A stretch of DNA of 64,000 bases, from assembly GCF_005938105.1 (NCBI RefSeq), contig NZ_VCPE01000001.1, positions 434,001 through 498,000 on the forward strand, given 5' to 3'. Under the pieces are notes generated by a model, which worked only from the letters and a program-made list of their open reading frames with translations, did no database searches and was not told the DNA's origin. Source of the DNA: Brucella haematophila. GTDB taxonomy: Bacteria; Pseudomonadota; Alphaproteobacteria; Rhizobiales; Rhizobiaceae. Shown piece by piece: positions 7,301 to 27,129 of the stretch; within the stretch, counting starts at the first letter, position 1; each line of letters starts with the position of its first letter. The position numbers were made by a program, and so were the translations under genes.

Positions 7301-9564
7301 ACGAGCTAACACGCGTTGCACCATTTGAAATTACCCGCCCGAAGGAATGGCTGACCGCTCGCGAGATCGCGGACGAAGCGCTTCCCGATTTGCCGGATAG
7401 TGAGCGCGGCATGCAAATCTATGCAGAACGGGAAGGTTGGACCAATAATCCTGGCTGCGTTCGCCGCCGTAAGGGCCGTGGTGGCGGCCTTGAGTACAAT
7501 TACCGGCTTCTGCCTACTCTCGCTCAGGTGACCTACGTGCAGCGCTACATGGTTACTGGCCGTGTAGAGCCACTTGCACTTATACCCACGGCAAATAGCA
7601 TTGTCCCGGTTTCCCTGACCGATCGTGCACAGCGTGAGCGCGATGCTCGCCTCGCGGTTATCGCGGCGTTTGAACTGTTCTTGAAGGGCCTTAATCTAAG
7701 CGTTCAAGGCGCATTGTTTATTTTCTGTGATCGCTACAATACCGGAATGATCCAGGTTGATCGGTGGGTCAAAGAAACCTTACCTAGCATTTCTCAGCGG
7801 TCAGTTTTCCGTTGGCGGTCCACCAAGGCCAAGGGTGCAAAAGATTCTCTCGGCGTTGATCGCTCGGAAGCTCGCAAGGGCAAGGGATTGTTGGAAACGG
7901 CCAACGGTGGCGAAGTCCGCGCCTTCATACTGGCTTGGATTGCTTCCAACCCGCACCTGTCTGCCGACATCATTCGCGGATATTGCGAGGATCATTTCGG
8001 TTCGTTTCTCGTTGATCGCCACGGTGTGATGACACCGTTGCCGCCGCTACGCACTTTTCAGCATTTCATTTCGGCACTTAAGGCCGACGAGAAGCTCGTA
8101 CTCACCAAGATTACGGACCCGGACAAGTTCCGCTCGACCATGAAGCTGTCTGGCACCGGCACCTATCGCCATGTTGATGAACCGAACGCGCTCTGGATGA
8201 TCGACGCTTCGCCGGTTGACGCCCTTTGCGTTGACGGTCGTCATTCGATGTATGCCTGCATCGACATCGCCACCCGTCGCCTTGTCATCACATTGTCGAA
8301 AACGCCTCGCGCATCTGCGGTGGCTCTTCTGATCCGCAAATCCACCCTAAAGTGGGGCGTAGCAACGATTATCAAAACGGATAACGGCTCCGATTTCGTT
8401 GCTATTGCCACCAAGCGGCTGTTTGACAATCTGGATATCACACCGGACATCTCCGACGCCTATACACCGGAACAAAAAGGCCATGTTGAGCGCGTCATCA
8501 AGACATTTCAGCACGAGGTATGCCCGCAGTTGCCGGGATATATCGGCCACTCAGTTGCTGATCGTAAGGCAATCGAAGGTCGGAAGAGCTTCGCGCAACG
8601 TCTCGGTGCCGACGAAAAGGAATTGTTTGAGGTCGATCTTACAGCGGCGCAACTTCAGCAGCACATTGATGACTGGTTAGAGTATCGATACCACGAGCGC
8701 GAACACGGTGGCCTTAAAAAGCGCACACCGAATGCGGTCGCGCAAGCATCGAACGCCGTCATTCGCCGCGTTGATGAACGCGCGCTCGACACGTTGCTCA
8801 TGCCGGTTGCCGGGAAGAACGGCCTCCGCAAGATGACCAAGCAAGGCATCAAGGACAACGGCCTACACTATGTCGCCGGTTCCATCATGGTCGGCACGGA
8901 AGTGTTCTGCCGACGCGATCCGCTCGATATGGGCAAGATGTATGTTTTTGCAGCCGATGGCGGAATGTTCCTCGATGTTGCCCTATGCCCCGAGTTGGCG
9001 GGCGTCAATCCGCAGGATTACGTCAAGGCTCAGAAGGACATCGCCGCCGATATCGTTCGCCAGCGTGAACGCGAGATCAAGGCTGATATCCGCGAGCTGA
9101 AGAAAGGCCCATCCGGCATCGAGCGCACCATACGTCTCGCCAAGCGCAAGGTCGCTGAAAAGGCCGGGCAGACCGCCAATGTCATCCAGTTGCCAAAGCG
9201 GGAAGAGCAGCACACCACGCCTGCCATTGCAGCTGCACTTGATGCCGCCACCCTTCCGCAGATGGGTGTTCCAGTAAAGCCGCTGAACGAAAAGGCGGCG
9301 GAGCTGCACGAAGCCATCATACGTGAGGCCGAGGACCGCAAGGCATCCAAGGTTGTTCATCTCGACCCGGACGCGGGCCTGAGTGCCAACGCGCGCCGCT
9401 TCAAATGGGCCATGGACCTCGAAACCAAGATTGCCGCTGGCGTCCAACTGGATGACGACACTGCCGCGCAGCTCGTCCGTTTTCAGGCCACGGCCGCATA
9501 CCGAACCATCAAAGACACAGCAAAGGATTTTGGACTGGAGCAAGCGCTGAAGATAGCTCGCTGA
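7297..9564 (+). CDS. MuA-type DDE transposase
   Basis: At 755 residues this is a little longer than MuA (663). An N-terminal winged-helix DNA-binding region is followed by further DNA-binding segments (RSVFRWRSTKAKG near 170). The catalytic core shows Asp303 (WMIDAS), Asp362 (KTDNGSD) and Glu398 (GHVERV). The last two are 35 residues apart, the classic DD35E triad. The C-terminal part (500-755) is lysine-rich and helical, where MuA contacts MuB and ClpX. It should bind the end sites described above, cut and join phage DNA during integration and replicative transposition. It starts by ATGA overlap with the preceding gene. Confidence 0.95.
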   Translation: MNELTRVAPFEITRPKEWLTAREIADEALPDLPDSERGMQIYAEREGWTNNPGCVRRRKGRGGGLEYNYRLLPTLAQVTYVQRYMVTGRVEPLALIPTANSIVPVSLTDRAQRERDARLAVIAAFELFLKGLNLSVQGALFIFCDRYNTGMIQVDRWVKETLPSISQRSVFRWRSTKAKGAKDSLGVDRSEARKGKGLLETANGGEVRAFILAWIASNPHLSADIIRGYCEDHFGSFLVDRHGVMTPLPPLRTFQHFISALKADEKLVLTKITDPDKFRSTMKLSGTGTYRHVDEPNALWMIDASPVDALCVDGRHSMYACIDIATRRLVITLSKTPRASAVALLIRKSTLKWGVATIIKTDNGSDFVAIATKRLFDNLDITPDISDAYTPEQKGHVERVIKTFQHEVCPQLPGYIGHSVADRKAIEGRKSFAQRLGADEKELFEVDLTAAQLQQHIDDWLEYRYHEREHGGLKKRTPNAVAQASNAVIRRVDERALDTLLMPVAGKNGLRKMTKQGIKDNGLHYVAGSIMVGTEVFCRRDPLDMGKMYVFAADGGMFLDVALCPELAGVNPQDYVKAQKDIAADIVRQREREIKADIRELKKGPSGIERTIRLAKRKVAEKAGQTANVIQLPKREEQHTTPAIAAALDAATLPQMGVPVKPLNEKAAELHEAIIREAEDRKASKVVHLDPDAGLSANARRFKWAMDLETKIAAGVQLDDDTAAQLVRFQATAAYRTIKDTAKDFGLEQALKIAR

Positions 9565-9572
9565 AAATAAAA

Positions 9573-9593
9573 AACCCCGTTGGAGCGGGGTTT
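9573..9593 (+). terminator. Hairpin between transposase A and B genes
   Basis: AACCCCG-TTGGAG-CGGGGTTT forms a GC stem with a short T-run directly after the transposase stop. It could partly terminate or attenuate transcription, lowering B relative to A. It covers the TTG at 9580, so that codon is not a credible start for the B gene. Confidence 0.55.
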
Positions 9594-9624
9594 CAAATTC
9601 AATTTCCAAGTCAATGAGGAAAAA

Positions 9625-10386
9625 ATGACTGGTAAAGAACCGATTGTCAATGGCGGGGACACCGCACCGATCAAGAATGTGGCCGCATGCCTCAATCTGG
9701 TCAGGTCGCTTCAGAACCGCCATCCGCTTCAGCCAAACCTCGGCGTATTCGCCGGGTTTTCGGGCTACGGCAAGTCTGTCGCGGCGCTCTATGCCATGAA
9801 CAAGACGGCTGCGGCCTATGTCGAGGTCTCCGACACCTGGACGAAAAAGAAGCTGCTCACTTCCATCCTGTCCGAACTTGGTCACCCGGACGCGAGAGGC
9901 ACGTTGTCCGATCTGGAAGATGAGATCATCGGCATTCTGGCGCGCGATCCTAAGCGCCCGCTCATCATTGATGAATCCGACAAGCTTGTCGATCGCAACA
10001 TGATTGAGCTGGTCCGCATGATAGCGAAGAAGAGCAACGTTCCGGTGTTGCTGATTGGCGAAGAGCTGTTTCCGAAGAAACTGGAGCGTGTCGATCGGTT
10101 CCGCGACCTCGTGCTGGAATGGGGATATGCGCAGCCATGCGATCTGGACGATACACGCACACTGGCTAAGACTTTCTGCCGCGCCGTTGCCATTGATGAC
10201 GCGCTGCTGGATCAGGCACGTATGGAAGGCGATGGTCGTGTCCGCCGCATTTGCAACACTCTCCATTCCATCGCCAATGCCGCCGACGAACTCGGCCTGA
10301 CGAAAATCAGCCTGGACGAGTATCAGAAGGGTGCAGGCTATTTTTGCACCGGCGCTGTTCCTTCGCGCAATCGGAGGGCCGCATGA
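9625..10386 (+). CDS. MuB-type AAA+ ATPase, transposition target protein
   Basis: The start at 9625 follows GAGGA and gives 253 residues. Walker A is GFSGYGKS (residues 44-51), Walker B is RPLIIDESDK near 112, and an arginine-rich C-terminal DNA-binding part follows. MuB is the ATP-dependent DNA-binding protein that delivers target DNA to the MuA transpososome and gives target immunity. Its position straight after the transposase matches Mu. Unlike MuB (312 residues) it lacks an obvious N-terminal helix-turn-helix extension. It overlaps the next gene by ATGA. Confidence 0.9.
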   Translation: MTGKEPIVNGGDTAPIKNVAACLNLVRSLQNRHPLQPNLGVFAGFSGYGKSVAALYAMNKTAAAYVEVSDTWTKKKLLTSILSELGHPDARGTLSDLEDEIIGILARDPKRPLIIDESDKLVDRNMIELVRMIAKKSNVPVLLIGEELFPKKLERVDRFRDLVLEWGYAQPCDLDDTRTLAKTFCRAVAIDDALLDQARMEGDGRVRRICNTLHSIANAADELGLTKISLDEYQKGAGYFCTGAVPSRNRRAA

Positions 10387-11012
10387 TGTCGATCGCACTC
10401 AAGCTCACCGTTGATAAGAACAAGTCGGCTATGCGCGGCATCGATCATTATTGGTCGGTGATGATGGACCACGAAATGCGCGGCATGACCTTCTCCGCGC
10501 CCGACATTATGGCATTTTCCAAGAATGCCCACCGTGACGACGTTTCAGACTTTCTTCGGCGATTGTTGAAGGCAGGCATCATCGAGCGTGTCGGCCAGAA
10601 GGAAACGCGGGCGATCATTTATCGCATCGTTGCCCGTCAGACGGCCACGCCAAAAGTCCGCCGTGATGGCACCGTCATCGAAAGTGTCTCAAAGCAGCGG
10701 GCCATGTGGAACTACATGCGCACCAATGCCGGTGCTCAGAGCTTCACCGCCCAAGACATCGTTGCGTGGTCATCGACCGACGATGTGCGCATCAACGTCG
10801 AGACAGCCAAATCATACATCGCAGTTCTGGCAAAGGCTGGCTACCTGATCGAGATGGTCAAAGGTACTCCAGGCAAGCTTGGCATATGGCGCTTGGCTCC
10901 GCACATGAACTCCGGCCCGTTGCCGCCGATGATCTTGCGCACGAAAGCTGTCTTTGATCAGAACCGGCATGAGATCGTCGGCCCCGTCGAGACGGAAGAG
11001 GTGCAACCATGA
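10383..11012 (+). CDS. Protein with two tandem winged-helix-like repeats
   Basis: The 209-residue protein contains two similar units. The first has MTFSAPDIMAFSKN then SDFLRRLLKAGIIERVG and YRIV. The second has QSFTAQDIVAWSSTD then KSYIAVLAKAGYLIEMVKG and WRLA. Each reads as helix-turn-helix plus wing (about residues 20-85 and 95-170). It should bind DNA, perhaps with one unit per half-site. The family name is not recognised. It sits between the B gene and another small helix-turn-helix gene, with ATGA overlaps on both sides. A regulatory or replication-accessory role is inferred. A second ATG at 10386 is also possible. Confidence 0.75.
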   Translation: MMSIALKLTVDKNKSAMRGIDHYWSVMMDHEMRGMTFSAPDIMAFSKNAHRDDVSDFLRRLLKAGIIERVGQKETRAIIYRIVARQTATPKVRRDGTVIESVSKQRAMWNYMRTNAGAQSFTAQDIVAWSSTDDVRINVETAKSYIAVLAKAGYLIEMVKGTPGKLGIWRLAPHMNSGPLPPMILRTKAVFDQNRHEIVGPVETEEVQP

Positions 11013-11392
11013 TGGCTGCAAAGCTCTCCAACATCGACAAGGCGCGTGCAGCCTGGGGCGAAGCCATCCCGGAATGGATCGTGATCCTCGCCGAAGCCTG
11101 CGACCGTGACAGTCAATCCGCCATTGCCCGCAAAGTTGGCTATTCGGCTTCTGCCATTAGCCAGGTGCTATCGAACAGCTACCAGAATGGCGACATCAGC
11201 CGCGTAGAGGGTGCCGTACGCGGCGCTCTTCTCGCCGAAACCGTCAGTTGCCCGATCATGGGCGACATCCCCCACAACACATGCCTCCTGTGGCAGCGCA
11301 AGCCTTTTGCCGCCACCAACTCCAACCGCGTCCGCATGTATCAGGCTTGCCGGTCAGGATGCCGGTTCAGCCGCTTGAAGGAAGGATCGTAA
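11009..11392 (+). CDS. Small helix-turn-helix protein with cysteine-rich tail
   Basis: The 127-residue protein has an N-terminal Cro/antitoxin-like helix-turn-helix at about residues 35-60 (SAIARKVGYSASAISQVLSN). Four cysteines lie in the C-terminal half (CPIM, NTCLLW, QACRSGC), which could bind zinc. The pairing of a DNA-binding head with a cysteine tail suggests a phage regulator, but I know no exact family. It starts by ATGA overlap with the preceding gene. Confidence 0.7.
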   Translation: MMAAKLSNIDKARAAWGEAIPEWIVILAEACDRDSQSAIARKVGYSASAISQVLSNSYQNGDISRVEGAVRGALLAETVSCPIMGDIPHNTCLLWQRKPFAATNSNRVRMYQACRSGCRFSRLKEGS

Positions 11393-11394
11393 TC

Positions 11395-11673
11395 ATGCTT
11401 TCCGAAAGTATCCGTGAAATGCGCAAACTGTTCCAGGAAGCCCTGCTGGAAGCTGGCGATTGCGTTCAGATTTCCAACCTCACGATGCAGAGCATCGTTG
11501 TTTCCCTGGTCGCCTACGAAGATGCGGCCAGCGGCATGGAACAGCAGCTCGGGCTGCAACCCATGTCGGTCCGACAGCGAAATTCAGGCAGCAGCATTCT
11601 GTCATTCCCACCTCAGCCAACCAAGCGCCCGAAGCTCGTCGTCATCCAGGGCGATGGCGGTGATGTGGCCTGA
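11395..11673 (+). CDS. Small early phage protein, unknown
   Basis: The ATG at 11395 lies 2 bases after the previous stop and gives 92 residues. The first half is helical and acidic (REMRKLFQEALLEAGDC). The end is rich in Pro and Lys (FPPQPTKRPKLVVIQG). No motif was recognised. Co-direction and spacing make it part of the early operon. Confidence 0.6.
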   Translation: MLSESIREMRKLFQEALLEAGDCVQISNLTMQSIVVSLVAYEDAASGMEQQLGLQPMSVRQRNSGSSILSFPPQPTKRPKLVVIQGDGGDVA

Positions 11674-11702
11674 TCATTCAATCCATCTTTAAGGAAGCTA
11701 AA

Positions 11703-12368
11703 ATGACCGAAGTAATGACCACCGCTGCATTCGCAGGAAATTCAGATCAGGGCGTCACCATGGTTGGAGACAAGCCCTACATGGCCAACGCCAAGGGCGC
11801 ACTGGTACCGCTCGAACTGGTGAAGCCCGCCGACAAGCTTCGTGACGAGACCGTCCGCAAGGTGATGGGTTACGCGAAGGACATCTCGGCGCAAATCAGC
11901 CGGTTCCGCAAGCACAGCATGACCGACCTCGACAGCCTGGATGAAGTTCTGGAGCAGGAATACAACGCCCGTCCAGGCGGCGTGAAGGGAAACCGGACCT
12001 ATCAGACCATAGACGGTCTGATGATGGTCAAGGTCAGCATCAATGATTTCGAGGTCGCAGGCCCGGAATTGCAGGTTGCGAAAAGCCTCATTGATGAGTG
12101 CCTGAACGAATGGACGGACGGCGCACGCGCTGAAATCCGCGCCATCATCACTCGCGCATTCGATACGGACAAGGAAGGTAAAATCAACCTGAAGGAAATC
12201 AAGAAGCTGACCAAGCTCGATATTTCCGATCAGCGTTGGAAGGACGCCATGCGCGCCATCGAGGACGCCATCGACGTTCAGTATTCCAAACAGTACGTGC
12301 GCTTTTACAAACGCGCTTCGGTTCAGGATGACTGGATCGCTGTCACTGTCGATATCGCGAAGGCGTGA
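11703..12368 (+). CDS. DUF3164-family phage protein
   Basis: A 221-residue protein of the size and layout of DUF3164 proteins found in the early block of Mu-like phages. Typical parts are PADKLRDETVRKVMGYAKD near residue 40, NRTYQTIDGLMMVKVSIND near 100 and a C-terminal RFYKRASVQDDWIAVTVDI. The biochemical function is unknown. It starts after a clear gap with AAGGAAGC upstream. In Mu the corresponding region holds gam and other early genes; this protein is not Gam. Confidence 0.75.
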   Translation: MTEVMTTAAFAGNSDQGVTMVGDKPYMANAKGALVPLELVKPADKLRDETVRKVMGYAKDISAQISRFRKHSMTDLDSLDEVLEQEYNARPGGVKGNRTYQTIDGLMMVKVSINDFEVAGPELQVAKSLIDECLNEWTDGARAEIRAIITRAFDTDKEGKINLKEIKKLTKLDISDQRWKDAMRAIEDAIDVQYSKQYVRFYKRASVQDDWIAVTVDIAKA

Positions 12369-12377
12369 GGTAACGTG

Positions 12378-12803
12378 ATGGAAAACTCAGCCCAATCCTA
12401 TAATGCCGCTCTTCAAGCTGTAACGAAGGCTATCCGTAACGCCGGTTCCTCTTACACGGCGATGGCCGAAGCCGCGATTGCAGTTGCTGTACCGCTTCTG
12501 CAAACTCCGACCATTCAGCTGCCAGTTCATAGCTGGCAGCTATTTCAGAGTGCACCGAAGGATGGGACATGGTTTCTCGCCTATCGGCCTCAGTCGAATG
12601 GCGGCACATGGGATCGCATATGCATCGTTCGTTGGTCAGACGAGGAAACCGATTTCGTTTGGCCAGAAGGTATTTTCGATATCTATCTGGATGATCTCTC
12701 AGACAGGGATCAGCTTGGTTATTTGAAGCATGACACTTACTCAGCTGGCGGTAGTTTCACCCACTGGTGTCGACTTCCTGCTGCACCGGAGGTGTCGGCA
12801 TGA
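12378..12803 (+). CDS. Hypothetical early phage protein with Trp-rich domain
   Basis: I prefer the ATG at 12378, seven bases after GAGG; a GTG at 12375 is also in frame. The 141-residue product has an N-terminal helix (AALQAVTKAIRNAG). A Trp/Asp-rich region follows (SWQLFQSAPKDGTWFLAYRP, then WDRICIVRWSD and FTHWCRLPAAP). The APKDGTWFLAY-type pattern occurs in small phage proteins of the DUF551 type, which end in the same HW..LP motif, so that family is a tentative match. It is coupled by ATGA to the next gene. Confidence 0.65.
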   Translation: MENSAQSYNAALQAVTKAIRNAGSSYTAMAEAAIAVAVPLLQTPTIQLPVHSWQLFQSAPKDGTWFLAYRPQSNGGTWDRICIVRWSDEETDFVWPEGIFDIYLDDLSDRDQLGYLKHDTYSAGGSFTHWCRLPAAPEVSA

Positions 12804-13078
12804 ACAAGCGCACCGGCCGTGCAGGTGAAGTGTCCGGCGTTCTGCTGTCGAACGTATGCGTCGTTTATAGCCCTGCGGGCACGGAGTTTCTGTCCGTGCC
12901 TGAAGGAGTAGACGGCCCAACTTTCTGCAAGTTGATGGTAGATCGCCGCGCCCACCCGTTCATTCCAATTCCGCCAGCTGAAAAACGCAGCCGCTCAAGC
13001 CGATGGCAGCACGCGATCCATTCTGGGCTTCGCGCTGTTGCTTCCGTTCTCTTCAGCCGAAAGGTCATATCCAAATGA
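12800..13078 (+). CDS. Small phage protein, paralogue of the 13593 gene
   Basis: The ATG at 12800 follows GGAGG and gives 92 residues. The N-terminal half (VSGVLLSNVCVVYSPAG, then EFLSVPEGVD) aligns with the start of the gene at 13593 (VFGVCLQKDCVIYTPDG, then EWHSIPSGAD). The C-terminal half is basic and differs. The pair flanks the GcrA-like gene, suggesting an old local duplication. Function unknown. Confidence 0.65.
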   Translation: MNKRTGRAGEVSGVLLSNVCVVYSPAGTEFLSVPEGVDGPTFCKLMVDRRAHPFIPIPPAEKRSRSSRWQHAIHSGLRAVASVLFSRKVISK

Positions 13079-13593
13079 GCAACCATCCCAACAGACTGTG
13101 GACCGATGAGCGCAAGCTCTCTGTTGCCACTTTGCTTCACGAAGGTCTCTCGGCCGGACAGATCGGTACTCGCCTAGGTGTGAGCCGCAATGCTGTTATC
13201 GGCATTATCCACCGCGACACGATGCTGAGCGAGATCGGCCTTGGTGGTGCCCGCCAGCCGAAGAAGGAGTCATCGCCCTATAAGCCCGGCCGCATGAAAA
13301 CCGCTGCGCGTCGGTCTTCAGCTCGGCAGTCACAACCCGCGCCAGTAGTCGTTCCGGCAGTCGAGCCGGAGCCGGTTTTCGTTTGTGAGGAATTGCCCGC
13401 ATTCGATCCGGCCATCGAGCCGCTTGGCTTACCATTGGCCGATATCTCGCTGCGCCAATGCCGGTTTGCTGTCAACAACGCAGCCAAAGGCGAACAGCAT
13501 CTGTTTTGCGGCCACCCCGTGAAAACTGGTTCCAGCTTCTGCGAGCATCATCATCGCCGCGTCTTTGTGCGTACTTCGAAGGCAGGTGTGTAA
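13075..13593 (+). CDS. GcrA-like transcriptional regulator
   Basis: The 172-residue protein matches the GcrA family at both ends. The N-terminal helix-turn-helix includes LWTDERKLSVATLLHEGLSA, then GTRLGVSRNAVIGIIHR at about 20-45. The C-terminal block has CRFAV, LFCGHPV and FCEHHHRRVF, the cysteine/histidine layout that in GcrA binds RNA polymerase region 2 of sigma70. In Alphaproteobacteria GcrA activates cell-cycle genes at GANTC sites methylated by CcrM. A phage copy could steer host transcription or use methylation state. It overlaps both neighbours (ATGA and TAATG). Confidence 0.85.
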   Translation: MSNHPNRLWTDERKLSVATLLHEGLSAGQIGTRLGVSRNAVIGIIHRDTMLSEIGLGGARQPKKESSPYKPGRMKTAARRSSARQSQPAPVVVPAVEPEPVFVCEELPAFDPAIEPLGLPLADISLRQCRFAVNNAAKGEQHLFCGHPVKTGSSFCEHHHRRVFVRTSKAGV

Positions 13594-14027
13594 TGAAGCG
13601 CCCGATCACCAACTTCCCTGATGTTTTTGGTGTCTGCTTGCAGAAAGACTGTGTGATTTACACGCCTGATGGCCTCGAGTGGCATTCCATTCCGTCAGGT
13701 GCCGATAGAAAGGCCTTTCTCAAAGAACTGATCGACAATCGCGAGCGCCTTCTCAACGAGAAGAAGTTCAGTTTCAGGATCAAGCGATTCATTAGAGTGA
13801 GTATTTTTCAGGTCGTTTCTTATCTGATCAATCAAATCCGAAACGTCCTCCGGCGATGGTTTGGTGGCAAGCCAGCGCTCAAGAATGCCGCGATTGATTG
13901 CCAGATAAGCAAGAGTTGTGACGAGCAAACCTCGATCGATTTCGTGCACGATGAATTCCCCCTGACCGTTTCAGATCAGCAATTTCCATCTGAGTCGAAG
14001 AGGCGTGGCAAGGCAGGTGTAGCATGA
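13593..14027 (+). CDS. Small phage protein, paralogue of the 12800 gene
   Basis: The frame starts by TAATG overlap with the GcrA-like gene and gives 144 residues. Residues 8-45 resemble the 12800 product. After about residue 50 the sequence is less convincing, with RIKRFIRVSIFQVVSYLINQ and a low-similarity tail. That stretch is antisense to a good minus-strand frame at 13695-13949. The stop overlaps the GemA start (ATGA), so the whole frame is probably translated for coupling. Function unknown. Confidence 0.5.
   Translation: MKRPITNFPDVFGVCLQKDCVIYTPDGLEWHSIPSGADRKAFLKELIDNRERLLNEKKFSFRIKRFIRVSIFQVVSYLINQIRNVLRRWFGGKPALKNAAIDCQISKSCDEQTSIDFVHDEFPLTVSDQQFPSESKRRGKAGVA
13695..13949 (-). CDS. 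Antisense small protein (possible moron)
   Basis: The GTG at 13949 is preceded by a strong site (AGGGGGA) at about seven bases. The 84-residue product looks protein-like: MHEIDRGLLVTTLAYLAINR, LATKPSPEDVSDLIDQIRND, then helical LLLVEKALAIVDQFFEKG. It lies wholly opposite the plus-strand 13593 gene. No signal peptide or family was recognised. If expressed from its own promoter it would run against the early phage transcript, like the secreted-protein gene at 14734-15057. Confidence 0.5.
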   Translation of the reverse strand: MHEIDRGLLVTTLAYLAINRGILERWLATKPSPEDVSDLIDQIRNDLKNTHSNESLDPETELLLVEKALAIVDQFFEKGLSIGT

Positions 14028-14668
14028 GGACCACCGCCGCCATACACGTCGCGAAAAAGCAGCTCGGTCTAGATGATGACACCTATCGCGCCATCTGCAT
14101 CCGCGTCACCGGCAAGCATTCGTCTGCGGCAATGACCGAAGGCGAACGCCTGAAGCTGATCGATGAATTTCGCCGTCAGGGTTTTAAGTCAGCTTCAAAG
14201 GGCGTTCGAAAGCGCCTTGAAGGCAAGTTCGCAGGCAAGCTTCAGGCGCTCTGGATTGCTGGATGGAACCTGGGCGTTTTTGAGAACCGATCCGACGAAG
14301 CACTGATTGCTTTCGTCCAACGACAGACTGGCGTCGATGATGTTCGTTTTGTGCACCACGCGGGTGATGCCCGCTCTGCCATTGAAGGGCTGAAAAAGTG
14401 GATCGAGCGCAAGGTGGGGCCGGTCTGGATGGAAACGGCTGATATGGAACCTTGGCGGCGCTCGGATGCTGCCAAGGTGGCGGCAGCTCAATGGAGCGTT
14501 CTATCTCAGCTTGGCAGATTGCCAGAGCCAGGTGGGCTTGAACGCTACGTCCGCAATCTGTGCGGCTTCGGGAATGAGGCGTTCCGTCTGACCGAAATGA
14601 CGAGCCAAGACTGGCAGTCTGTCATGAATGAGCTTGGCAACGAGATCAGAAAGGCTGTGCAGTCGTAA
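14024..14668 (+). CDS. gemA: GemA-like regulatory protein (Mu gp16)
   Basis: The 214-residue protein matches the phage Mu GemA family (DUF1018). The N-terminus has HVAKKQLGLDDDTYRAI and RVTGKHSSAAMTEGER. The middle has KLQALWIAGWNLGVF and DEALIAFVQRQTGVDDVRF, and a C-terminal helical part follows. In Mu, GemA lies just before mor and changes host gene expression and DNA supercoiling. Here too it precedes the Mor-like gene, with cargo in between. Start coupled by ATGA. Confidence 0.85.
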   Translation: MRTTAAIHVAKKQLGLDDDTYRAICIRVTGKHSSAAMTEGERLKLIDEFRRQGFKSASKGVRKRLEGKFAGKLQALWIAGWNLGVFENRSDEALIAFVQRQTGVDDVRFVHHAGDARSAIEGLKKWIERKVGPVWMETADMEPWRRSDAAKVAAAQWSVLSQLGRLPEPGGLERYVRNLCGFGNEAFRLTEMTSQDWQSVMNELGNEIRKAVQS

Positions 14669-14706
14669 TGATCTCCAGCTGCCCTACTATAGGATTTAAA
14701 GCCATG

Positions 14707-14725
14707 CGTCAGCTATTGGCTGACG
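14707..14725. terminator. Hairpin between GemA and the minus-strand cargo gene
   Basis: CGTCAGC-TATTG-GCTGACG is a perfect 7-bp stem placed between convergent genes, just after the stop of the minus-strand gene. No strong T-run follows on either strand, so it is a possible weak bidirectional terminator. The plus frame that opens at 14668 is not supported beyond this. Confidence 0.45.
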
Positions 14726-14733
14726 TGTTGGTG

Positions 14734-15057
14734 TCACTGTTTGACAAATCCAAGCTTGGCAGCTGTTTGGCGAGCGGTGGCGCAGTAGGCTACCTTTTCG
14801 GACGGCGTCATATCACCGACCCTACTTTTCTGCATTCGCGTCCATCGTGTGAGGGTTGCAGGAAAGCCTACATCCTCTGCAGGAACATTATCCGCGACAT
14901 ATTTTTCGATGGCCGCCGGTTCATAGGACATTCCACACGGCTCCTCAGCAGCGAGAATAGTACCGAAATTAATCGCCGTCAGCTCTGCATTGAACTCTTC
15001 GGCGTGAACGGTCGCGCTAAGTGCGATGAGTGCCAGTCCAGCGAGTACCAGTTTCAT
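14734..15057 (-). CDS. Secreted small protein carried by the prophage (moron)
   Basis: The ATG at 15057 follows GGGGG and gives 107 residues. The first 20 are a clean Sec signal peptide (MKLVLAGLALIALSATVHA) with an AHA-E-like cleavage site. The mature part has two cysteines (EEPCGMSY and AYCATA), able to form one disulfide, and ends QTAAKLGFVKQ. It lies on the opposite strand to all surrounding early genes, a typical moron arrangement. A periplasmic or secreted site is inferred and the function is unknown. Lysogenic conversion or superinfection exclusion are possible roles. Confidence 0.8.
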   Translation of the reverse strand: MKLVLAGLALIALSATVHAEEFNAELTAINFGTILAAEEPCGMSYEPAAIEKYVADNVPAEDVGFPATLTRWTRMQKSRVGDMTPSEKVAYCATARQTAAKLGFVKQ

Positions 15058-15120
15058 ATCAACCCCCTGCGAATTTCCCCTAATAAAGCGCGGCTCCCGC
15101 ACTTTGGCAATGGTGAGGGC

Positions 15121-15342
15121 ATGATTATGGTTCAGCATTCAGCATCACTGGTTAACCTGCCTCTTTTTATCGCGCCGGAACAAGCCGAGATCAATCGCCT
15201 TCAGTCCGAGCGCGAAACCCTTCAACGCCGTATCAATCTGATGCGGCCGCATTCCCATAAACGTGTCGAGCTGGAAGCCCGTCTGCGGACTGTCACCGCG
15301 CGCCAGCTGGCTATATCGGCACAGATCGAGAGGCCGCAGTGA
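15121..15342 (+). CDS. Short coiled-coil phage protein upstream of Mor
   Basis: Starting at the ATG at 15121 (a second ATG at 15127 suits the GAGGG site better) the product has about 73 residues. It is mostly a charged coiled coil (EQAEINRLQSERETLQRRIN, then RVELEARLRTVTARQLAIS). The stop overlaps the GTG start of the Mor-like gene. The longer frame opening at 14668 overlaps the secreted-protein gene and is not supported. Function unknown. Confidence 0.6.
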   Translation: MIMVQHSASLVNLPLFIAPEQAEINRLQSERETLQRRINLMRPHSHKRVELEARLRTVTARQLAISAQIERPQ

Positions 15343-15725
15343 AGGAGGAAAACAACAGCCTCATTGCAGAACTGATCGACCTTCTTGGAGAAGAAGGATT
15401 GATCCGCCTTGCCGATGCACATGCAGGTATCCGACTTTATGTTCCTTCGCCGTCCAACGTTAGTCGGTCGCAGCTGGTTGATAGTCTCGGGTCTGATATT
15501 GTAACCAAGCTTTCCCGGCGTTATGGCGGTGACGGCTTCACGGTACCATTGATCCGCGATATGCGTGCGAGGCGGGATCGTGACCAGGGCTTGTCGAACG
15601 CGCAGATTGCACGTAGGTTGGGCATCCGTGAGGATGCCGTCGAAAAGATTTTCAACCGCTCTCCGGTCAAGTATCGTCCCAAGAAAAAGGACGATCGCCA
15701 GATAGAAATGTTCCCCTCCGAATAG
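15339..15725 (+). CDS. Mor-family middle transcription activator
   Basis: A GTG start at 15339 overlaps the previous stop and gives 128 residues. The C-terminal part has the Mor/C pattern: FTVPLIRDMRARRDRDQGL followed by a helix-turn-helix (NAQIARRLGIREDAVEKIFN) and the basic end KYRPKKKD. In Mu, Mor activates middle transcription and the related C activates late genes; both bind DNA as dimers. Only one member is seen here, so it may serve both steps. It directly precedes a hairpin and the lysis/late block. Confidence 0.85.
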   Translation: MKEENNSLIAELIDLLGEEGLIRLADAHAGIRLYVPSPSNVSRSQLVDSLGSDIVTKLSRRYGGDGFTVPLIRDMRARRDRDQGLSNAQIARRLGIREDAVEKIFNRSPVKYRPKKKDDRQIEMFPSE

Positions 15726-15736
15726 TCCAGAAGTGC

Positions 15737-15753
15737 CGCCCGCCAGAGCGGGC
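15737..15753 (+). terminator. GC hairpin after the Mor-like gene
   Basis: GCCCGC-CAGA-GCGGGC forms a compact hairpin between the Mor-like gene and the endolysin gene. A T-run is lacking. A second partial stem, GTTCA...TGAAC with an inner GCCC...GGGC, spans 15788-15820. This gap is the likely site of the activator-dependent late promoter, but no clear -10/-35 pair was found. Confidence 0.5.
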
Positions 15754-15843
15754 GTGAACCCCATTATAGCCGCCGTGTAAAACTTTGTTCATGCCCATCA
15801 TAGCGGGCCTGTTTCTTGAACACTGTTTCGCGGAGGGCGTGAT

Positions 15844-16680
15844 GTGACCGATCTAGCATCTCAAATCAATCACACGGTTCTTGCCGCGCTTGCGCCCCGT
15901 GTCGCTGTTAGCAAGATTAAAAACCAGCAGTCGATTATTGCCTCTTTCGGCCCGTTGCTGCCCGACTTCCTGAAGCGCTTTCAGCTTACGACCGGACTGC
16001 GCATCGTTCATTTCCTCGCGCAGCTCGCTCACGAGAGCGACGGCTTTTGTGCGATCGAGGAATATGCCAGTGGTGCCGCCTACGAGGGCCGCGCCGATCT
16101 AGGCAATACACAGCCTGGAGACGGCAAGCGCTATAAGGGCCGCAGCCCGATCCAGTTGACCGGCCGCGCCAATTATCGAACCTTCACCAAATGGGTACGT
16201 GGGTACGTTCCCGACGCGCCGGATTTCGAAGCAAAGCCTGAATTAGTGGCCACTTGGCCGTGGGCTGCGTGGGCTGTCTTTTATTTCTGGTCAACTCGGA
16301 ACCTCAACGATCTTGCCGATAAGGATGATTTGGTTGGAGTTACGAAGCGCATAAACGGCGGCACCAACGGCCTAGCAGATCGCGCAGCGTACCTTGCCAA
16401 GGCAAAGGATATTGTTGCCGAGCTTCAGGCCGACAACCTTTCCTCAAATCCGGGTGATATCGTTCTGCGGCGGGGAATGCGCGGCCTTGCTGTCGCGGAC
16501 CTTCAGCGCGCGCTACGTAGTGCCGGTTTTTATCATCTATCGATCGACAGTATTTTCGGCCCTGGCACCGAGCAGGCGGTGATTGCATTCCAGCGCGATT
16601 ATCGACTGGTGGCTGACGGGCTTGTCGGTGCAAAGACCTTCGCACAGCTGAAGCGTTTCATGCCGGAGGTTGCGGCATGA
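15844..16680 (+). CDS. Endolysin: GH19-type lysozyme with peptidoglycan-binding domain
   Basis: The GTG at 15844 follows GGAGGG at six bases and gives 278 residues. The first about 195 residues are a glycoside hydrolase family 19 (chitinase-like) domain. It has FLAQLAHESDGF, where the Glu is the likely general acid, and YKGRSPIQLTGRANY. The C-terminal about 70 residues form a peptidoglycan-binding domain (LRRGMRGLAVADLQRALRSA, then FGPGTEQAVIAFQRD). It should cleave host peptidoglycan at lysis. There is no signal peptide, so export depends on the phage membrane protein encoded next (coupled by ATGA). Confidence 0.9.
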   Translation: MTDLASQINHTVLAALAPRVAVSKIKNQQSIIASFGPLLPDFLKRFQLTTGLRIVHFLAQLAHESDGFCAIEEYASGAAYEGRADLGNTQPGDGKRYKGRSPIQLTGRANYRTFTKWVRGYVPDAPDFEAKPELVATWPWAAWAVFYFWSTRNLNDLADKDDLVGVTKRINGGTNGLADRAAYLAKAKDIVAELQADNLSSNPGDIVLRRGMRGLAVADLQRALRSAGFYHLSIDSIFGPGTEQAVIAFQRDYRLVADGLVGAKTFAQLKRFMPEVAA

Positions 16681-16943
16681 GCGAGCCGATCAAAGAACCG
16701 GGCTACCGCTCGACCCGCCGCTATCTCTGGGGCAGTTTCTATCTCGCCTGGGCGGTCATACTGATCCTCGTCGGCGCTGCCTCGATTGGCTCTGAACAGG
16801 CCGTGGCGATCGCGCCCATCGTCGTGCCATCGATGGTGGCATTGATCGTGGGCGTACTCGGCGTCCATCGCGGATTTGGTTCGGTCGATTTCCGGTCCCA
16901 GACGCTGGCGCAAAATCCTGATCCGCGCGGGGGCCGACCATGA
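16677..16943 (+). CDS. Small two-helix membrane protein, holin candidate
   Basis: The 88-residue protein has two membrane segments (about residues 20-40, LAWAVILILVGAA, and 45-65, APIVVPSMVALIVGVLG) and charged ends. Size, topology and position between the endolysin and Rz fit a holin. I do not recognise a named family, so a pore role is inference. Confidence 0.6.
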   Translation: MSEPIKEPGYRSTRRYLWGSFYLAWAVILILVGAASIGSEQAVAIAPIVVPSMVALIVGVLGVHRGFGSVDFRSQTLAQNPDPRGGRP

Positions 16944-17347
16944 TCGCAGCTCTTACTGCATGGTTCGCCAAGTGGACATCGCAGATCATGATCGCCGCCG
17001 TTGTTCTTCTGGCGGCTTCGGTTTTGGCTTTCGGTGCTGTCCGCACCTTGCGCGATACGATCGGCGATGCGGTCGCCATCGCCGAGAAAGCACGCGATGC
17101 CCATTGGTCCGCGCAAATTGCCACGGCCAATGAAACGGCTGCAAAGAACATCATCGAGCAGATGAAAGCTGCGAACGCCTTGAACGAAAAGGCGCAAGCG
17201 GAAATCTCCCGCCTCAAGAACCAAGTTTCTCAATTGGAGGATGCCAATGCGGCACTTTCTGACACTCCTGGTAGTGGCATCGATGTCGATCGCTCACGGC
17301 TGCTCAACAACCAGTTCCTTGGAGGAAAAGCCAATCCTCCGTACTGA
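16940..17347 (+). CDS. Rz-like inner-membrane spanin
   Basis: The 135-residue protein has one N-terminal membrane segment (IMIAAVVLLAASVLAFG, about 16-33) followed by a periplasmic coiled coil (NALNEKAQAEISRLKNQVSQ). This is the layout of Rz i-spanins, which join the outer-membrane partner to fuse the two membranes at the last step of lysis. The partner Rz1 starts inside this gene in another frame. Confidence 0.75.
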   Translation: MIAALTAWFAKWTSQIMIAAVVLLAASVLAFGAVRTLRDTIGDAVAIAEKARDAHWSAQIATANETAAKNIIEQMKAANALNEKAQAEISRLKNQVSQLEDANAALSDTPGSGIDVDRSRLLNNQFLGGKANPPY

Positions 17348-17549
17348 ATTCATCAGGGGTCAAGTGCCGTCTGAAGCGCGCAAGCCATGCGACCCACCTG
17401 TCACCCTGCCTGATCGCGCGCTGTCAGCGAAAGAGCTAACGCCACTTTGGGGCAAGGATCGCGCCGCACTTGCCGTCTGCGAACAACGGCGCGGTGCAGC
17501 CATTGCTGCCATCGACGCGGTGCCCGTGCCAGCGGAGCGGCCGAAGTGA
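17247..17549 (+). CDS. Rz1-like outer-membrane lipoprotein spanin
   Basis: The ATG at 17247 follows GGAGG and gives 100 residues. A signal sequence with a lipobox (SIAHGC, Cys at about 19) marks a lipoprotein. The mature part includes a Pro-containing stretch (KPCDPPVTLPDRA). It overlaps the last 100 bases of the Rz-like gene in another frame, the typical Rz/Rz1 nested arrangement. Together they should bridge the periplasm at lysis. Confidence 0.8.
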   Translation: MRHFLTLLVVASMSIAHGCSTTSSLEEKPILRTEFIRGQVPSEARKPCDPPVTLPDRALSAKELTPLWGKDRAALAVCEQRRGAAIAAIDAVPVPAERPK

Positions 17550-17776
17550 TGGAAGCCGGCAACAGGGCACATGAGCTTGCCGATCTGCGCGCCGAGCAAG
17601 AGCGGGACGCGGGAATCGCTGCCGCGTCAGCTGCATTGATTGGAGACGGATCAGACATTTGCGTCCGCTGCGGCGAAGAGATCGAACCGGAGCGGCTTGC
17701 AGCTCTGCCATCGGCGCGTCGGTGTGTGGATTGTCAGAGCAAACTTGAACGCGAGCAGTCCAGGGGGCGTCGTTAA
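17549..17776 (+). CDS. TraR/DksA-type zinc-finger protein
   Basis: The ATG at 17549 overlaps the Rz1 stop (TGATG) and gives 75 residues. A four-cysteine zinc finger (CVRCGEEI then RCVDCQ) follows a helical N-terminus (HELADLRAEQERDAGI). Small TraR-like proteins bind the RNA polymerase secondary channel and mimic DksA with ppGpp. Such genes are common between lysis and head genes of Mu- and P2-like phages. Coupled to the next gene by TAATG. Confidence 0.8.
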   Translation: MEAGNRAHELADLRAEQERDAGIAAASAALIGDGSDICVRCGEEIEPERLAALPSARRCVDCQSKLEREQSRGRR

Positions 17777-18093
17777 TGCTGGAGAATATCTCACTCGCCC
17801 AGATCGGGCAGCTCATCAATTTCTTGCTGGCGGCTGCGGCCTTCCTTGGAGTGGTCAGCGGTTACATCGGCAAGGGCGCGAAGGAGATATCCGCCAGGGT
17901 TTCGGATCACGAGCATCGCCTGTCAAAGGTCGAGAATGATCTGTCGCACATGCCGAATACCGAAACCGTCCATCAGCTCCAGCTCGCGATCACGGAGATC
18001 AAAGGCCAGATGGGAATTATGGCGAAGTCATCGGAGGCAACCGAACGGACGACGCGCCGTGTTGAAGAATTTTTGATGCAGAAAGGACGTTAG
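17776..18093 (+). CDS. DUF2730-like membrane/coiled-coil protein (Mu gp25)
   Basis: The 105-residue protein has one membrane segment (about 11-30, LINFLLAAAAFLGVVSG) and a long coiled coil (SDHEHRLSKVENDLSHM onward). This matches DUF2730 of Mu-like phages by size, layout and position ahead of the terminase genes. Function unknown. Confidence 0.7.
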   Translation: MLENISLAQIGQLINFLLAAAAFLGVVSGYIGKGAKEISARVSDHEHRLSKVENDLSHMPNTETVHQLQLAITEIKGQMGIMAKSSEATERTTRRVEEFLMQKGR

Positions 18094-18095
18094 GA

Positions 18096-18401
18096 ATGAC
18101 GGCGGGTTACAAGGATTTTGTCGATCAGAATGTACGCCTCATCATCCTGAAGGCGCTCGCGATGGAGACGAATGCCAGTCTGAACGACAGCCTGCTTGAA
18201 CGCGAGCTGGAGGTGTTCGGCTACAAACGCACCCGCGAATATCTGCGCAATCAGATGCGCTGGCTCGAATCCGAAGCTGGCGCTGTTCGTATCAGTGCCG
18301 CAGGCACAGCCCTCATCGCCACGTTGACCAGGACCGGCCGCGATCATGTTGAGCGCCGTCTCGTCCTCGAAGGCATCCAGCGACCGGGCGATGTGGAGTA
18401 A
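18096..18401 (+). CDS. Mu gp26-like protein with winged-helix character
   Basis: The 101-residue protein contains LIILKALAMETNASLNDSLL, then REYLRNQMRWLE and ISAAGTALIATLTRTGRDHV. This winged-helix-like pattern belongs to a conserved Mu-like phage protein found before the terminase genes (Mu gp26 position). Its role is unknown, possibly packaging-related DNA binding. Confidence 0.7.
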   Translation: MTAGYKDFVDQNVRLIILKALAMETNASLNDSLLERELEVFGYKRTREYLRNQMRWLESEAGAVRISAAGTALIATLTRTGRDHVERRLVLEGIQRPGDVE

Positions 18402-18407
18402 CATACC

Positions 18408-18983
18408 ATGGCAAACGACAGGCGCGGCCGTTCCCGGCTCGACAGCATGGAATTGTTGCCTGAAGAAGCCCAGGACGATGTTGTCTGGGCAATCAGTCAG
18501 CTCAACGAACGCCGCCGCAGTCAGGCGGATATTCTTTTTGAGCTGAATGATCGTCTGGAGGTCAAGGGCATTGGCCCGATATCGAAGTCGGCTTTTAATC
18601 GTAAATCCACTCGTCTTCGTCGTCGAACCGATCAACTGGAAGAGCGCCGTTACATCTATGCTGGTATCGCCGAGAAGCTAACGCCTGAAGAAATCGGTCG
18701 GTCCGATATAGTTCTCGGTGAGTTCCTCAAAACGCTCATCGATGAGCTGCTCGACGGCGATGGTCTTAATTCTAAAAACGCCATGGAACTGGCGCGCGCG
18801 TATAAGGAAACCGTGGTTGCGCAACGCCATTCTGCTGAGCATCGCCGCAAGGCCGAACAGGAAGCCAGTGCCAAACTGGCGAAGGCGGTCGGTGACGCGA
18901 CGGACGCTGTCGAGAAAGCAGGTCGCAAGGTGGATGGCGAAGAAATCCTGCGCATGATCCGTGAAGCTTATGGGACATCCTGA
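18408..18983 (+). CDS. DUF3486-family small terminase-like protein (Mu gp27)
   Basis: The 191-residue protein begins RRGRSRLDSMELLPEEAQDD, typical of the Mu gp27 family (DUF3486), and continues with a long helical region ending EEILRMIREAYG. By position it is the small terminase or DNA-recognition partner of the large terminase encoded next. It overlaps neither neighbour strongly but is tightly spaced. Confidence 0.8.
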   Translation: MANDRRGRSRLDSMELLPEEAQDDVVWAISQLNERRRSQADILFELNDRLEVKGIGPISKSAFNRKSTRLRRRTDQLEERRYIYAGIAEKLTPEEIGRSDIVLGEFLKTLIDELLDGDGLNSKNAMELARAYKETVVAQRHSAEHRRKAEQEASAKLAKAVGDATDAVEKAGRKVDGEEILRMIREAYGTS

Positions 18984-20323
18984 TGACACAACCTTTGCTT
19001 TACGGTTATCAGCGCCGCTGGCTCACAGATAAAAGCCGTTTCAAAATTGGCAAATTTGCCCGCCAAACCGGCAAGACGTTCACCACAACACTTGAATGCG
19101 TTGATGACAGTTTTGAGCATGCGATCAAGAGCCAGCGTACACGGTGGGTGATATTGAGCCGTGGTGAACGTCAAGCCCGTGAAGCCATGTTGGAAGGAAT
19201 ATACCCTCACGCCAAGGCTTACGGCATGGCGTTCGACGCCAACGAGTTTGATTGGCAGGGTGATACCGGCAGCTACAAGGCGCTGGAAGTGACATTGCCG
19301 CATGGCACCCGCATCACGGCTCTTCCAGCAAATCCCGACACGGCGCGCGGCTTCTCTGCCAACGTATTCTTGGATGAGTTCGCTTTTCACAAAGACAGTA
19401 ACGCGATCTGGAAAGCGCTCTTTCCGGTAATCTCGGCCAACTGGAAGCTGCGCGTCACATCGACACCGAATGGCAAGAGCGGGAAATTCTTCGAACTGGA
19501 CACTGCCAACGACGATACCTGGTCACGTCATGTTGTCGATATCTATCAGGCGGTCAAAGACGGTTTGCCACGCAACATTGAGGAACTGCGTGCCGGTATT
19601 GCCGACGAAGATGCCTGGGCACAGGAATATGAGCTGCAATATCTCGATGAGGCAAGCGCCTGGCTGTCCTACGAACTGATCTCATCGGTCGAAGACGATG
19701 ATGCAGGAAGCCCCCAAGGCTATCAGGGCAACGCTTGCTATGTCGGGCGCGATATCGGCCGACGCAACGACCTTCATGTGATCTGGGTATGGGAAGAGAT
19801 CGGCGATGTCTTGTGGTGTCGCGAGATCATCGAGCAAAAGCGCGCCACCTTTGCCGACATGGATGCCGCTTTTGATGATGTGATGATGCGCTACCGTGTG
19901 GCGCGGGCCTGCATCGACCAGACCGGCATGGGCGAAAAGGTGGTCGAGGACGCACAGCGCCGCTACGGTCGTCGTGTCGAGGGCGTCCTGTTTAGTACCG
20001 GCAGCAAGCTGATCATGGCAAACGGCGGCAAAGAGCGTTTCGAAGACCGGACCGTCCGCATACCGATGGGCGATGTTCCGCTTCGCTCCGATCTGCACAA
20101 ACTGCGCAAGGTCACATCGCCAACCGGCGCGCCGCGATTTGTTGCCGAGAGAGACGACGATCACGCCGACAGGACCTGGGCTGCTTTCCTTGGCATCCAT
20201 GCCGCCAGTACACCGCATATGGAATACGGCTACGAAACACGCCGCAATGTGCCGTCCGATGGCCGCAGCCGATCAGATGATCGTGAGCGTTCGATTAATC
20301 CACAATTGAGAGGTTCGCTCTGA
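18983..20323 (+). CDS. Large terminase (Mu gp28-like)
   Basis: The 446-residue protein has a Walker A-like element (ARQTGKT, about 29-35), Walker B (VFLDEFAF, about 128-135) and a C-terminal RNase H-like nuclease part (CYVGRDIGRRNDLHVIWVWE near 250; ACIDQTGMGEKVVE near 312). It packages phage DNA into proheads by the headful mechanism. It couples to the portal gene by TGATG. Confidence 0.9.
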   Translation: MTQPLLYGYQRRWLTDKSRFKIGKFARQTGKTFTTTLECVDDSFEHAIKSQRTRWVILSRGERQAREAMLEGIYPHAKAYGMAFDANEFDWQGDTGSYKALEVTLPHGTRITALPANPDTARGFSANVFLDEFAFHKDSNAIWKALFPVISANWKLRVTSTPNGKSGKFFELDTANDDTWSRHVVDIYQAVKDGLPRNIEELRAGIADEDAWAQEYELQYLDEASAWLSYELISSVEDDDAGSPQGYQGNACYVGRDIGRRNDLHVIWVWEEIGDVLWCREIIEQKRATFADMDAAFDDVMMRYRVARACIDQTGMGEKVVEDAQRRYGRRVEGVLFSTGSKLIMANGGKERFEDRTVRIPMGDVPLRSDLHKLRKVTSPTGAPRFVAERDDDHADRTWAAFLGIHAASTPHMEYGYETRRNVPSDGRSRSDDRERSINPQLRGSL

Positions 20324-27128: not shown

Positions 27129-27129
27129 G

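What the first reader, a model, noticed from the sequence alone, without database searches (positions are those of the whole stretch)
13075..13593. Phage-borne GcrA-like regulator
GcrA controls cell-cycle genes at methylated GANTC sites in Alphaproteobacteria. Here a GcrA-like gene lies in the early operon. With a phage adenine methyltransferase at the right end, the phage may read or change methylation to time its own or host genes.
Basis: partly seen in the sequence, partly recalled or inferred. Interest (0 to 1): 0.7.

Follow-up and report, generated by a model that had tools for sequence, protein, structure and literature searches.

The report
GcrA-like regulator in Mu-like prophage
A virus sleeping in an Ochrobactrum-type bacterium carries its own altered version of a bacterial cell-cycle regulator, which probably acts on the host's transcription machinery rather than on the virus's own control sites.

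Summary
ORF 13075-13593 (+), 172 aa, is a GcrA-family protein (PF07750 77.6 bits, cut-off 26.9) in the early operon of a 37,152-bp Mu-like prophage (4517-41668). It is not the host's cell-cycle GcrA, a separate gene: 57 bits against a 280-bit equivalog cut-off. Twelve distinct phage loci found with gcrA carry it, under purifying selection (dN/dS 0.13); 25 syntenic Mu-like loci lack it. The recognition-helix core is kept, but 10 of 16 near-invariant positions of the sigma-binding domain differ. The methylation story is mostly unsupported: 24 GANTC sites against 192 expected, none at the presumed early or late control regions; the methyltransferase is Dam/DpnM-type, and a like enzyme lies at fitting distance in 8 of 15 GcrA-less lysogens. 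Best reading: an RNA-polymerase cofactor, or a GcrA competitor, acting in trans on host promoters; function is inferred. Phage-borne GcrA is in print since 2012 (phiCbK); this is a Mu-phage variant with an altered sigma-binding domain.

The parts
13075..13593 (+). GcrA-family protein, 172 aa: N-terminal helix-turn-helix (about residues 8-48), linker (49-115), C-terminal sigma-interacting-type domain (116-166) with a C-C-C-H pattern
13183..13215 (+). recognition-helix segment SRNAVIGIIHR, residues 37-47; R38 N39 I42 H46 R47 as in cellular GcrA, the cellular-invariant Lys is Ile
   Evidence: residues converted to window coordinates from the start at 13075
13459..13551 (+). C-terminal domain core, C129..FC145..C156..H159; cellular WP.GDP replaced by FAVNNA
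   Evidence: residues 129-159 converted to window coordinates
12800..13078 (+). small early ORF overlapping the gcrA start; no Pfam or PHROGs family
13593..14027 (+). small early ORF overlapping the gcrA stop; resembles 12800-13078 by eye; its family lies beside gcrA in some relatives, on either side
14024..14668 (+). GemA (PF06252, 111.3 bits)
11703..12368 (+). DUF3164 protein (PF11363; phrog_846)
7297..9564 (+). Mu-type transposase MuA (Mu-transpos_C, rve, HTH_Tnp_Mu_1)
9580..10386 (+). MuB-type AAA ATPase (AAA_22, TniB)
5982..6833 (+). ParB-like protein (phrog_3264)
6833..7300 (+). phage transcriptional regulator (phrog_2345), in the position of Mu Ner
4689..5369 (-). CI/S24-type repressor (Peptidase_S24, Phage_CI_repr)
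15339..15725 (+). Mor/late-activator type regulator (phrog_836)
20323..21903 (+). Mu portal protein (PF06074)
24652..25602 (+). Mu-like major head subunit gpT (PF10124)
40384..41187 (+). D12-class (Dam/DpnM-type) adenine methyltransferase at the right end; not of the CcrM family
4517..41668 (.). Mu-like prophage, 37,152 bp, TG...CA ends
   Evidence: unoccupied site in L108
4512..4516 (.). left copy of the 5-bp target duplication GATCG
41669..41673 (.). right copy of the 5-bp target duplication GATCG
13267..13271 (.). GANTC site inside gcrA (codons E65-S66), kept in 11 of 12 phage genes; codon inertia can explain it

Best explanation
A Mu-like (transposable) prophage of an Ochrobactrum-type host carries, in its early operon of overlapping genes shortly before gemA, a diverged two-domain GcrA-family protein. 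SHOWN from sequence: the family, both domains, the position, maintenance under purifying selection, and that it is a separate and strongly diverged gene from the host's own gcrA. INFERRED: early in lytic growth the protein is made and acts in trans on host RNA polymerase. Its helix-turn-helix still reads a GcrA-type site (CcrM-methylated GANTC at host promoters). Its C-terminal domain, strongly conserved among the phages but altered where cellular GcrAs are near-invariant, contacts sigma70 domain 2 or the holoenzyme in a changed way. The effect would be to redirect or override the host GcrA regulon (replication and division genes) in favour of transposition-replication. The phage's own early and late control regions are unlikely targets, because they lack GANTC.
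For: Family and domains. Twelve distinct phage loci, found with gcrA as query, carry it upstream of GemA in 12 of 12, although neighbours and even MuA differ (L003 has a very distant MuA but an 83%-identical GcrA). dN/dS 0.132 overall: 0.125 DBD, 0.161 linker, 0.047 C-terminal domain. R, N, I, H, R of the recognition-helix region kept in 12 of 12. The host has its own GcrA and one PF01555 methyltransferase, taken here to be CcrM. GANTC observed/expected 0.12 in the prophage, none at the presumed early or late control regions. The idea has a published precedent in phiCbK-like phages (PMC3556154, passages).
Against: No binding or expression data. The invariant recognition-helix Lys is Ile/Val and a Gly is deleted in 12 of 12; 10 of 16 near-invariant positions of the C-terminal domain differ in the window protein, so sigma70 binding as in C. 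crescentus cannot be assumed. Other Mu-like phages do without the gene (25 distinct loci).
Confidence: 0.45

Rival explanations
1. Competitor (anti-GcrA): it occupies the host's methylated GcrA sites through the kept recognition helix but does not recruit sigma70, because the sigma-facing surface is altered, so it shuts down the GcrA regulon in dominant-negative fashion.
For: The DNA-reading domain is better kept than the C-terminal one: 18 of 26 against 6 of 16 near-invariant positions as in cellular GcrA (window protein).
Against: The C-terminal domain is under the strongest purifying selection of the protein (dN/dS 0.047), so it probably has a partner; a pure DNA competitor would not need it.
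Confidence: 0.2
2. Cis regulator with changed DNA specificity: it recruits sigma70 to phage middle or late promoters at a site other than GANTC.
For: Recognition-helix changes (invariant Lys to Ile/Val, Gly deletion, 12 of 12); overlapping early gene upstream of the Mor-type regulator.
Against: The Mor-type regulator (phrog_836 'late transcriptional activator') already fills a late-activation role, and most syntenic loci without gcrA also have a Mor-type gene; the SRN core is unchanged.
Confidence: 0.2
3. One reading: gcrA and the phage methyltransferase form a methylation read/write pair controlling the phage's own genes through GANTC.
For: Both genes are in the prophage; one GANTC inside gcrA is kept in 11 of 12 phages.
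Against: The methyltransferase is D12/DpnM-type and a D12 enzyme lies at fitting distance from MuA in 8 of 15 lysogens with a GcrA-less locus. GANTC is depleted eightfold and absent from the presumed control regions. The kept GANTC can follow from conserved Glu-Ser codons.
Confidence: 0.05
4. Passenger: a captured GcrA-family gene with no important role.
For: Absent from 25 distinct syntenic Mu-like loci.
Against: Purifying selection and intact frames in the 12 phage genes, with mean dS about 0.9.
Confidence: 0.1

Closest known systems
GcrA of C. crescentus (7ye1; PF07750)
   Same: HTH + linker + C-terminal domain; among others W3, R7, S20, A21, R33, N34, I37, H41, R42 of the HTH and C118, FC133, C143, H146 of the C-terminal domain
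   Different: a Gly deleted before, and the invariant Lys changed in, the recognition helix; WP.GDP to FAVNNA; no equivalog-level score (57 of 280 bits)
phiCbK gp222 / CcrRogue gp228 (Caulobacter giant phages; PMC3556154)
   Same: phage-encoded GcrA-family protein with a similar proposed benefit
   Different: The opposite pattern: phiCbK keeps CRWPYGDP but reads KSAVCGKADR in the recognition helix, whereas the Mu-type keeps SRNAVIG but has FAVNNA; the two are drawn apart in the tree, on a weak backbone
GcrA-like genes of Agrobacterium phage Atu_ph08, brucellaphage Y17, phiLM21-like prophages and Rhizobium phages
   Same: phage-borne GcrA annotation in phages of Hyphomicrobiales
   Different: none was called Mu-like in the passages read; the only annotated phage record that P0001 found at E <= 0.01 is RHph_Y1_10, 24.8% identical
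Rhodobacter phage RC1 / Rhodovulum phage RS1 (Mu-like)
   Same: nearest annotated MuA, 41.6%
   Different: not among the records that the tblastn with P0001 found; their gene tables were not opened

Membership tests
GcrA superfamily (PF07750) | score over Pfam's curated cut-off across nearly the whole model | tested here: met
   77.6 bits against 26.9, model 3-150 of 155
GcrA superfamily (PF07750) | HTH with conserved recognition helix | tested here: met
   18 of 26 near-invariant cellular positions as in the window protein, 12 of 26 in all 12 phages; Lys39 changed in all 12, and one Gly (outside that count) deleted in all 12
GcrA superfamily (PF07750) | sigma-interacting domain invariants | tested here: inconclusive
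   6 of 16 as in the window protein (C, F, C, G, C, H), 5 of 16 in all 12 phages; W, P, G, D, P, F, Y and others replaced in 12 of 12
Cell-cycle GcrA (NCBIfam NF050816 equivalog) | equivalog cut-off | tested here: not met
   57 bits against 280
Cell-cycle GcrA | orthology with the host gcrA | tested here: not met
   the host gcrA is a separate gene, 33% identical; outside the cellular branch in tree 1 (97/97), unresolved in tree 2
Cell-cycle GcrA | binds sigma70 domain 2 and m6A-GANTC promoters | not testable with these tools
   structure prediction switched off, no bench
Mu-like transposable phage | MuA, MuB, GemA, Mor-type regulator, Mu portal and gpT, TG..CA ends, 5-bp duplication | tested here: met
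CcrM, for the phage methyltransferase | member of PF01555 (N6_N4_Mtase) | tested here: not met
   the phage enzyme matches PF02086 and no other Pfam family at E <= 0.01, nearest PDB DpnM; the only PF01555 match of the genome is on another contig
CcrM, for the phage methyltransferase | GANTC specificity | not testable with these tools
   no methylome data

The most novel reading that the evidence does not exclude
Transposable phages of this host group keep an early-operon slot beside gemA for m6A-related control of the host: one sublineage fills it with a GcrA-type reader with a rewired sigma-facing domain (a host-directed competitor or redirector), sister phages with an MT-A70-type adenine methyltransferase (writer), while the phage genome hides from the host CcrM/GcrA system by near-total loss of GANTC.
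Probability: 0.15. Interest if true: 0.65.

Novelty: new variant of a known kind. Interest (0 to 1): 0.4.

Why it matters
Phage-borne GcrA has been noted for over a decade, and the searches made here (listings, with passages of a few papers) showed no functional test of one. This family offers a natural separation of functions: Mu-type proteins keep the DNA-reading helix and change the sigma-facing domain, phiCbK-type proteins do the reverse, and five same-genus loci carry only the sigma-type domain. Comparing them could show whether phages exploit, redirect or block the alphaproteobacterial CcrM/GcrA circuit. The eightfold GANTC depletion makes a clear prediction: host promoters, not phage promoters, are the targets.

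Tried and rejected
Methyltransferase-GcrA pair: rejected as above. GANTC in the phage control regions: looked for, none in 5322-6000 past the repressor-gene site at 5321, none around 15725-15844; promoters themselves were not mapped. Conserved GANTC inside gcrA as an autoregulatory site: kept in 11 of 12 phage genes, but all 8 invariant Ser columns keep their codon family (TCN or AGY), so inertia suffices. Noted against this dismissal: the prophage otherwise avoids Glu-Ser written GARTCN (5 TCN to 15 AGY, against 454 to 190 for other Ser; Fisher p = 4.8e-5). GANTC depletion as a mark of GcrA carriage: not supported; GcrA+ early regions 0.04-0.13 (9 of 12 loci counted, window 5 against 54.5) overlap GcrA-less ones 0.00-0.47 (21 of 25 loci counted). 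Recent capture of the host gene: unlikely from 33% identity and long branches; tree 1 puts all 34 cellular rows on one side of a branch (97/97), but tree 2, with phiCbK-type rows added, leaves the phage group, the host's gcrA and some other cellular rows in one unresolved, weakly supported half (63/86), so an old origin near that part of the family stays open. The cellular GcrAs used (the window genome's own and 29 others) were the best-scoring loci returned from 179 of 289 class genomes with a match, so they lean to typical GcrAs. Rows dropped: L006 (Flavobacterium contig, 37% over residues 117-164 only) was left out of counts and trees. The label 'Gam' in my script was positional: the window gene is DUF3164, while L010 has a true Mu Gam. 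Review PMC10073500, which holds all four terms, was seen only in listings.

Full report
What is there. ORF 13075-13593 encodes 172 aa. It matches PF07750 GcrA at 77.6 bits (cut-off 26.9), residues 9-169 on model 3-150 of 155, phrog_16311 of unknown function, and C. crescentus GcrA 7ye1 by sequence (E 4.6e-12). Against NCBI's equivalog model for the cell-cycle protein it reaches 57 of 280 bits. The whole genome has two PF07750 matches; the other (217 bits) is the chromosomal gcrA, 33% identical. In the genus, 35 of 35 genomes have a high-scoring gcrA and 10 of 35 carry further, lower-scoring matches, some partial or broken; the Mu-phage type is in 3 of 35 (G000, G013 twice, G030).

Setting. The window holds a Mu-like prophage: repressor, ParB-like and Ner-position regulators, MuA, MuB, DUF3164, gcrA, GemA and a Mor-type regulator, then terminase, Mu portal and gpT. 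In a same-genus genome without it, window 1-4515 and 41678-44929 lie next to each other within a few bases; the prophage starts TG at 4517, ends CA at 41668, and is flanked by GATCG on both sides. gcrA overlaps its neighbours at start and stop.

Conservation. Twelve distinct loci carry this gcrA: the window, L003 (same as L007, L051), L004 (L008, L052, L062), L005 (L011, L053, L064), L009, L010, L012, L013 (L077), L014 (L063), L015 (L065), L016 (L080), L017 (L018, L078, L079). L004 and L009 are nearly identical. They were found with gcrA as query, so 12 of 12 is by selection. GemA follows in 12 of 12; the DUF3164 hit precedes in 8 of 12. Of 23 viral loci found with MuA as query, 9 carry gcrA (L012, L062-L065, L077-L080), 10 reach GemA without it (L066, L068-L070, L072, L073, L075, L076, L081, L083), and 4 end before GemA (L067, L071, L074, L082). 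Adding the family's genomes, 25 distinct MuA-bearing loci that reach GemA have no gcrA hit at E <= 1e-3: nine viral contigs and 16 loci from other genera (L084-L095, L097-L100; L066 equals L084; L096 and L101 are too short; other identities between viral and genome loci were not checked). Only 18 of 297 family genomes had a MuA match at E <= 1e-60. gcrA follows the GemA-Mor-lysis side rather than MuA: L013, L016 and L017 have MuA only 54-55% identical, and L003 a very distant MuA, yet their GcrAs are 72-83% identical.

Selection. Nei-Gojobori means over the 12 genes (59-64 usable pairs of 66): dN/dS 0.125 (DBD), 0.161 (linker), 0.047 (C-terminal domain), 0.132 (all). The C-terminal domain is the most constrained part.

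Residues. Against 31 cellular GcrAs (the window genome's own, 29 from the class, and a C. crescentus fragment covering residues 3-150), 26 near-invariant DBD columns hold a window residue: 18 as in the window, 12 kept in all 12 phages. Of 16 in the C-terminal domain, 6 are as in the window and 5 kept in all 12. Kept in all 12 (C. crescentus numbering): W3, T4, R7, G18, S20, A21, R33, N34, I37, H41, R42, G44; C118, F132, C133, C143, H146. Among those lost in 12 of 12: W15, A25, one Gly (29, deleted), K39; W120, P121, G123, D124, P125, F130, Y142. The fragment has no letters for the last two C-terminal columns. Which residues contact sigma70 or the methyl group could not be checked: the structural papers are not held; a review (passages) gives domain limits only (DBD 1-45, SID 108-173).

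Origin. Tree 1 (54 rows): all 34 cellular rows on one side of a branch (97/97), the 12 Mu-type rows on another (95/92), with two same-genus copies of unresolved context (L049, L050) beside them (83/84). Tree 2 (49 rows with phiCbK, CcrRogue, RHph_X2_24 and Ssp-JY42 added): Mu-type 99/97, with L049/L050 100/99 on a long branch; phiCbK and CcrRogue are drawn in the other half, but the split of halves is weak (63/86), and the host's gcrA lies unresolved in the same half as the phage group. The program warns of long branches. I conclude that the gene is not a recent copy of the host's gcrA; its deep origin is open.

Methylation. The prophage has 24 GANTC against 192.5 expected from dinucleotides (0.12), the lowest of 16 gapped palindromes (next 0.46); the host flanks 0.28; GATC 1.31. 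Control regions: one GANTC at 5321 inside the repressor gene, none from there to 6000, none around 15725-15844. GcrA-less Mu-like early regions are depleted too (21 loci, 0.00-0.47), GcrA+ ones 0.04-0.13. Others found no positional asymmetry of GcrA-site predictions in phage genomes (PMC9437464, passages), which agrees. The right-end enzyme is D12-class, TIGR00571 dam at 85.5 of 114.85 bits, nearest structures DpnM and 7m6b. Of the 16 other-genus lysogens searched, 15 have a GcrA-less Mu locus reaching GemA (the contig of G155 ends before it); of these 15, 8 (G050, G055, G112, G183, G245, G249, G281, G303) have a D12 enzyme about 33-43 kb from MuA on the same strand, 5 have none in the genome, 2 only elsewhere. 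Prophage ends were not mapped there. Of two GcrA+ genomes searched by handle, G614 (L003) has one at a fitting distance if its C12 is L003's contig, and G615 (L004, L005) one that appears to be on another contig.

A slot observation. In 7 distinct GcrA-less loci (L066, L068-L070, L072, L073, L076) the gene directly before gemA is an MT-A70 family methyltransferase (PF05063 tested for L072 and L066; the rest by profile search); L074 has one but ends before gemA; in 5 more (L081, L090, L097, L098, L100) it lies between GemA and Mor; 0 of 12 GcrA+ loci have one; the other 13 GcrA-less loci of the 25 have neither. My motif search saw ADPPW in 8 of 14 rows; L066/L084 read ADCPH. This is confounded with phage relatedness and is offered as a lead.

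In print. Phage GcrA homologues: phiCbK-like phages (PMC3556154, passages), Atu_ph08 gp5 (PMC6630229, passages), brucellaphage Y17 ORF4/ORF5 (PMC11836647, passages), a table row giving 5 among phiLM21-like prophages (PMC12429752); 34 phage records match a C. crescentus GcrA query. The search with GcrA, prophage and Mu-like listed one paper holding all three terms, Mu-like only in a reference title. Searches with transposable phage, GcrA-like and GcrA homolog listed no functional study of a phage GcrA (listings). In A. tumefaciens GcrA promotes RepC of the second origin and is not essential in the tested conditions (PMC11514494, passages), relevant since this host group also tends to have two chromosomes (recalled).

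Verdict. Observation confirmed; family placement secure; mechanism inferred. The most likely role is in trans on host transcription (0.45), with competitor (0.2) and changed-specificity cis regulator (0.2) as rivals.

Noticed in passing
L055, L056, L057, L058, L059 (same-genus genomes): Five ORFs of 62-104 aa carry only the C-terminal GcrA-type domain (C[KR]WP[VI]N..FCG..YC..H; PF07750 45.8 and 48.3 bits for the two tested), in four of them beside a conserved ORF of 262-334 aa (the copy tested has no Pfam or PHROGs family): possible sigma-binding proteins without a DNA-binding part. Whether they lie in prophages was not settled.
   Followed up: partly
L066, L068-L070, L072-L074, L076, L081, L090, L097, L098, L100: MT-A70 adenine methyltransferase in the early region of GcrA-less Mu-like phages, directly before gemA in seven.
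   Followed up: partly
window 12800-13078 and 13593-14027: The two small ORFs flanking gcrA look by eye like diverged copies of each other; hits to this family sit on either side of gcrA in relatives.
   Followed up: partly
window 4517-41668 and 21 GcrA-less Mu-like early regions: Strong GANTC depletion in Mu-like phages of this bacterial family, up to no site at all in 13.4 kb (L089).
   Followed up: partly
window 14734-15138 (-): 134-aa ORF on the opposite strand between GemA and the Mor-type gene; no PADLOC hit.
   Followed up: no
window 41752-41827 (-): tRNA-Thr just outside the right end of the prophage; Mu-like insertion, so probably coincidence.
   Followed up: no
L223 (hit H26), H27, H22: GcrA-family matches in phages filed under the cyanobacteria Synechococcus and Microcystis; the true host may be an alphaproteobacterial companion (guess).
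   Followed up: no
L006, match at 8001-8126: A Flavobacterium contig matched residues 117-164 at 37%, a GcrA-type C-terminal domain outside Alphaproteobacteria if real.
   Followed up: no
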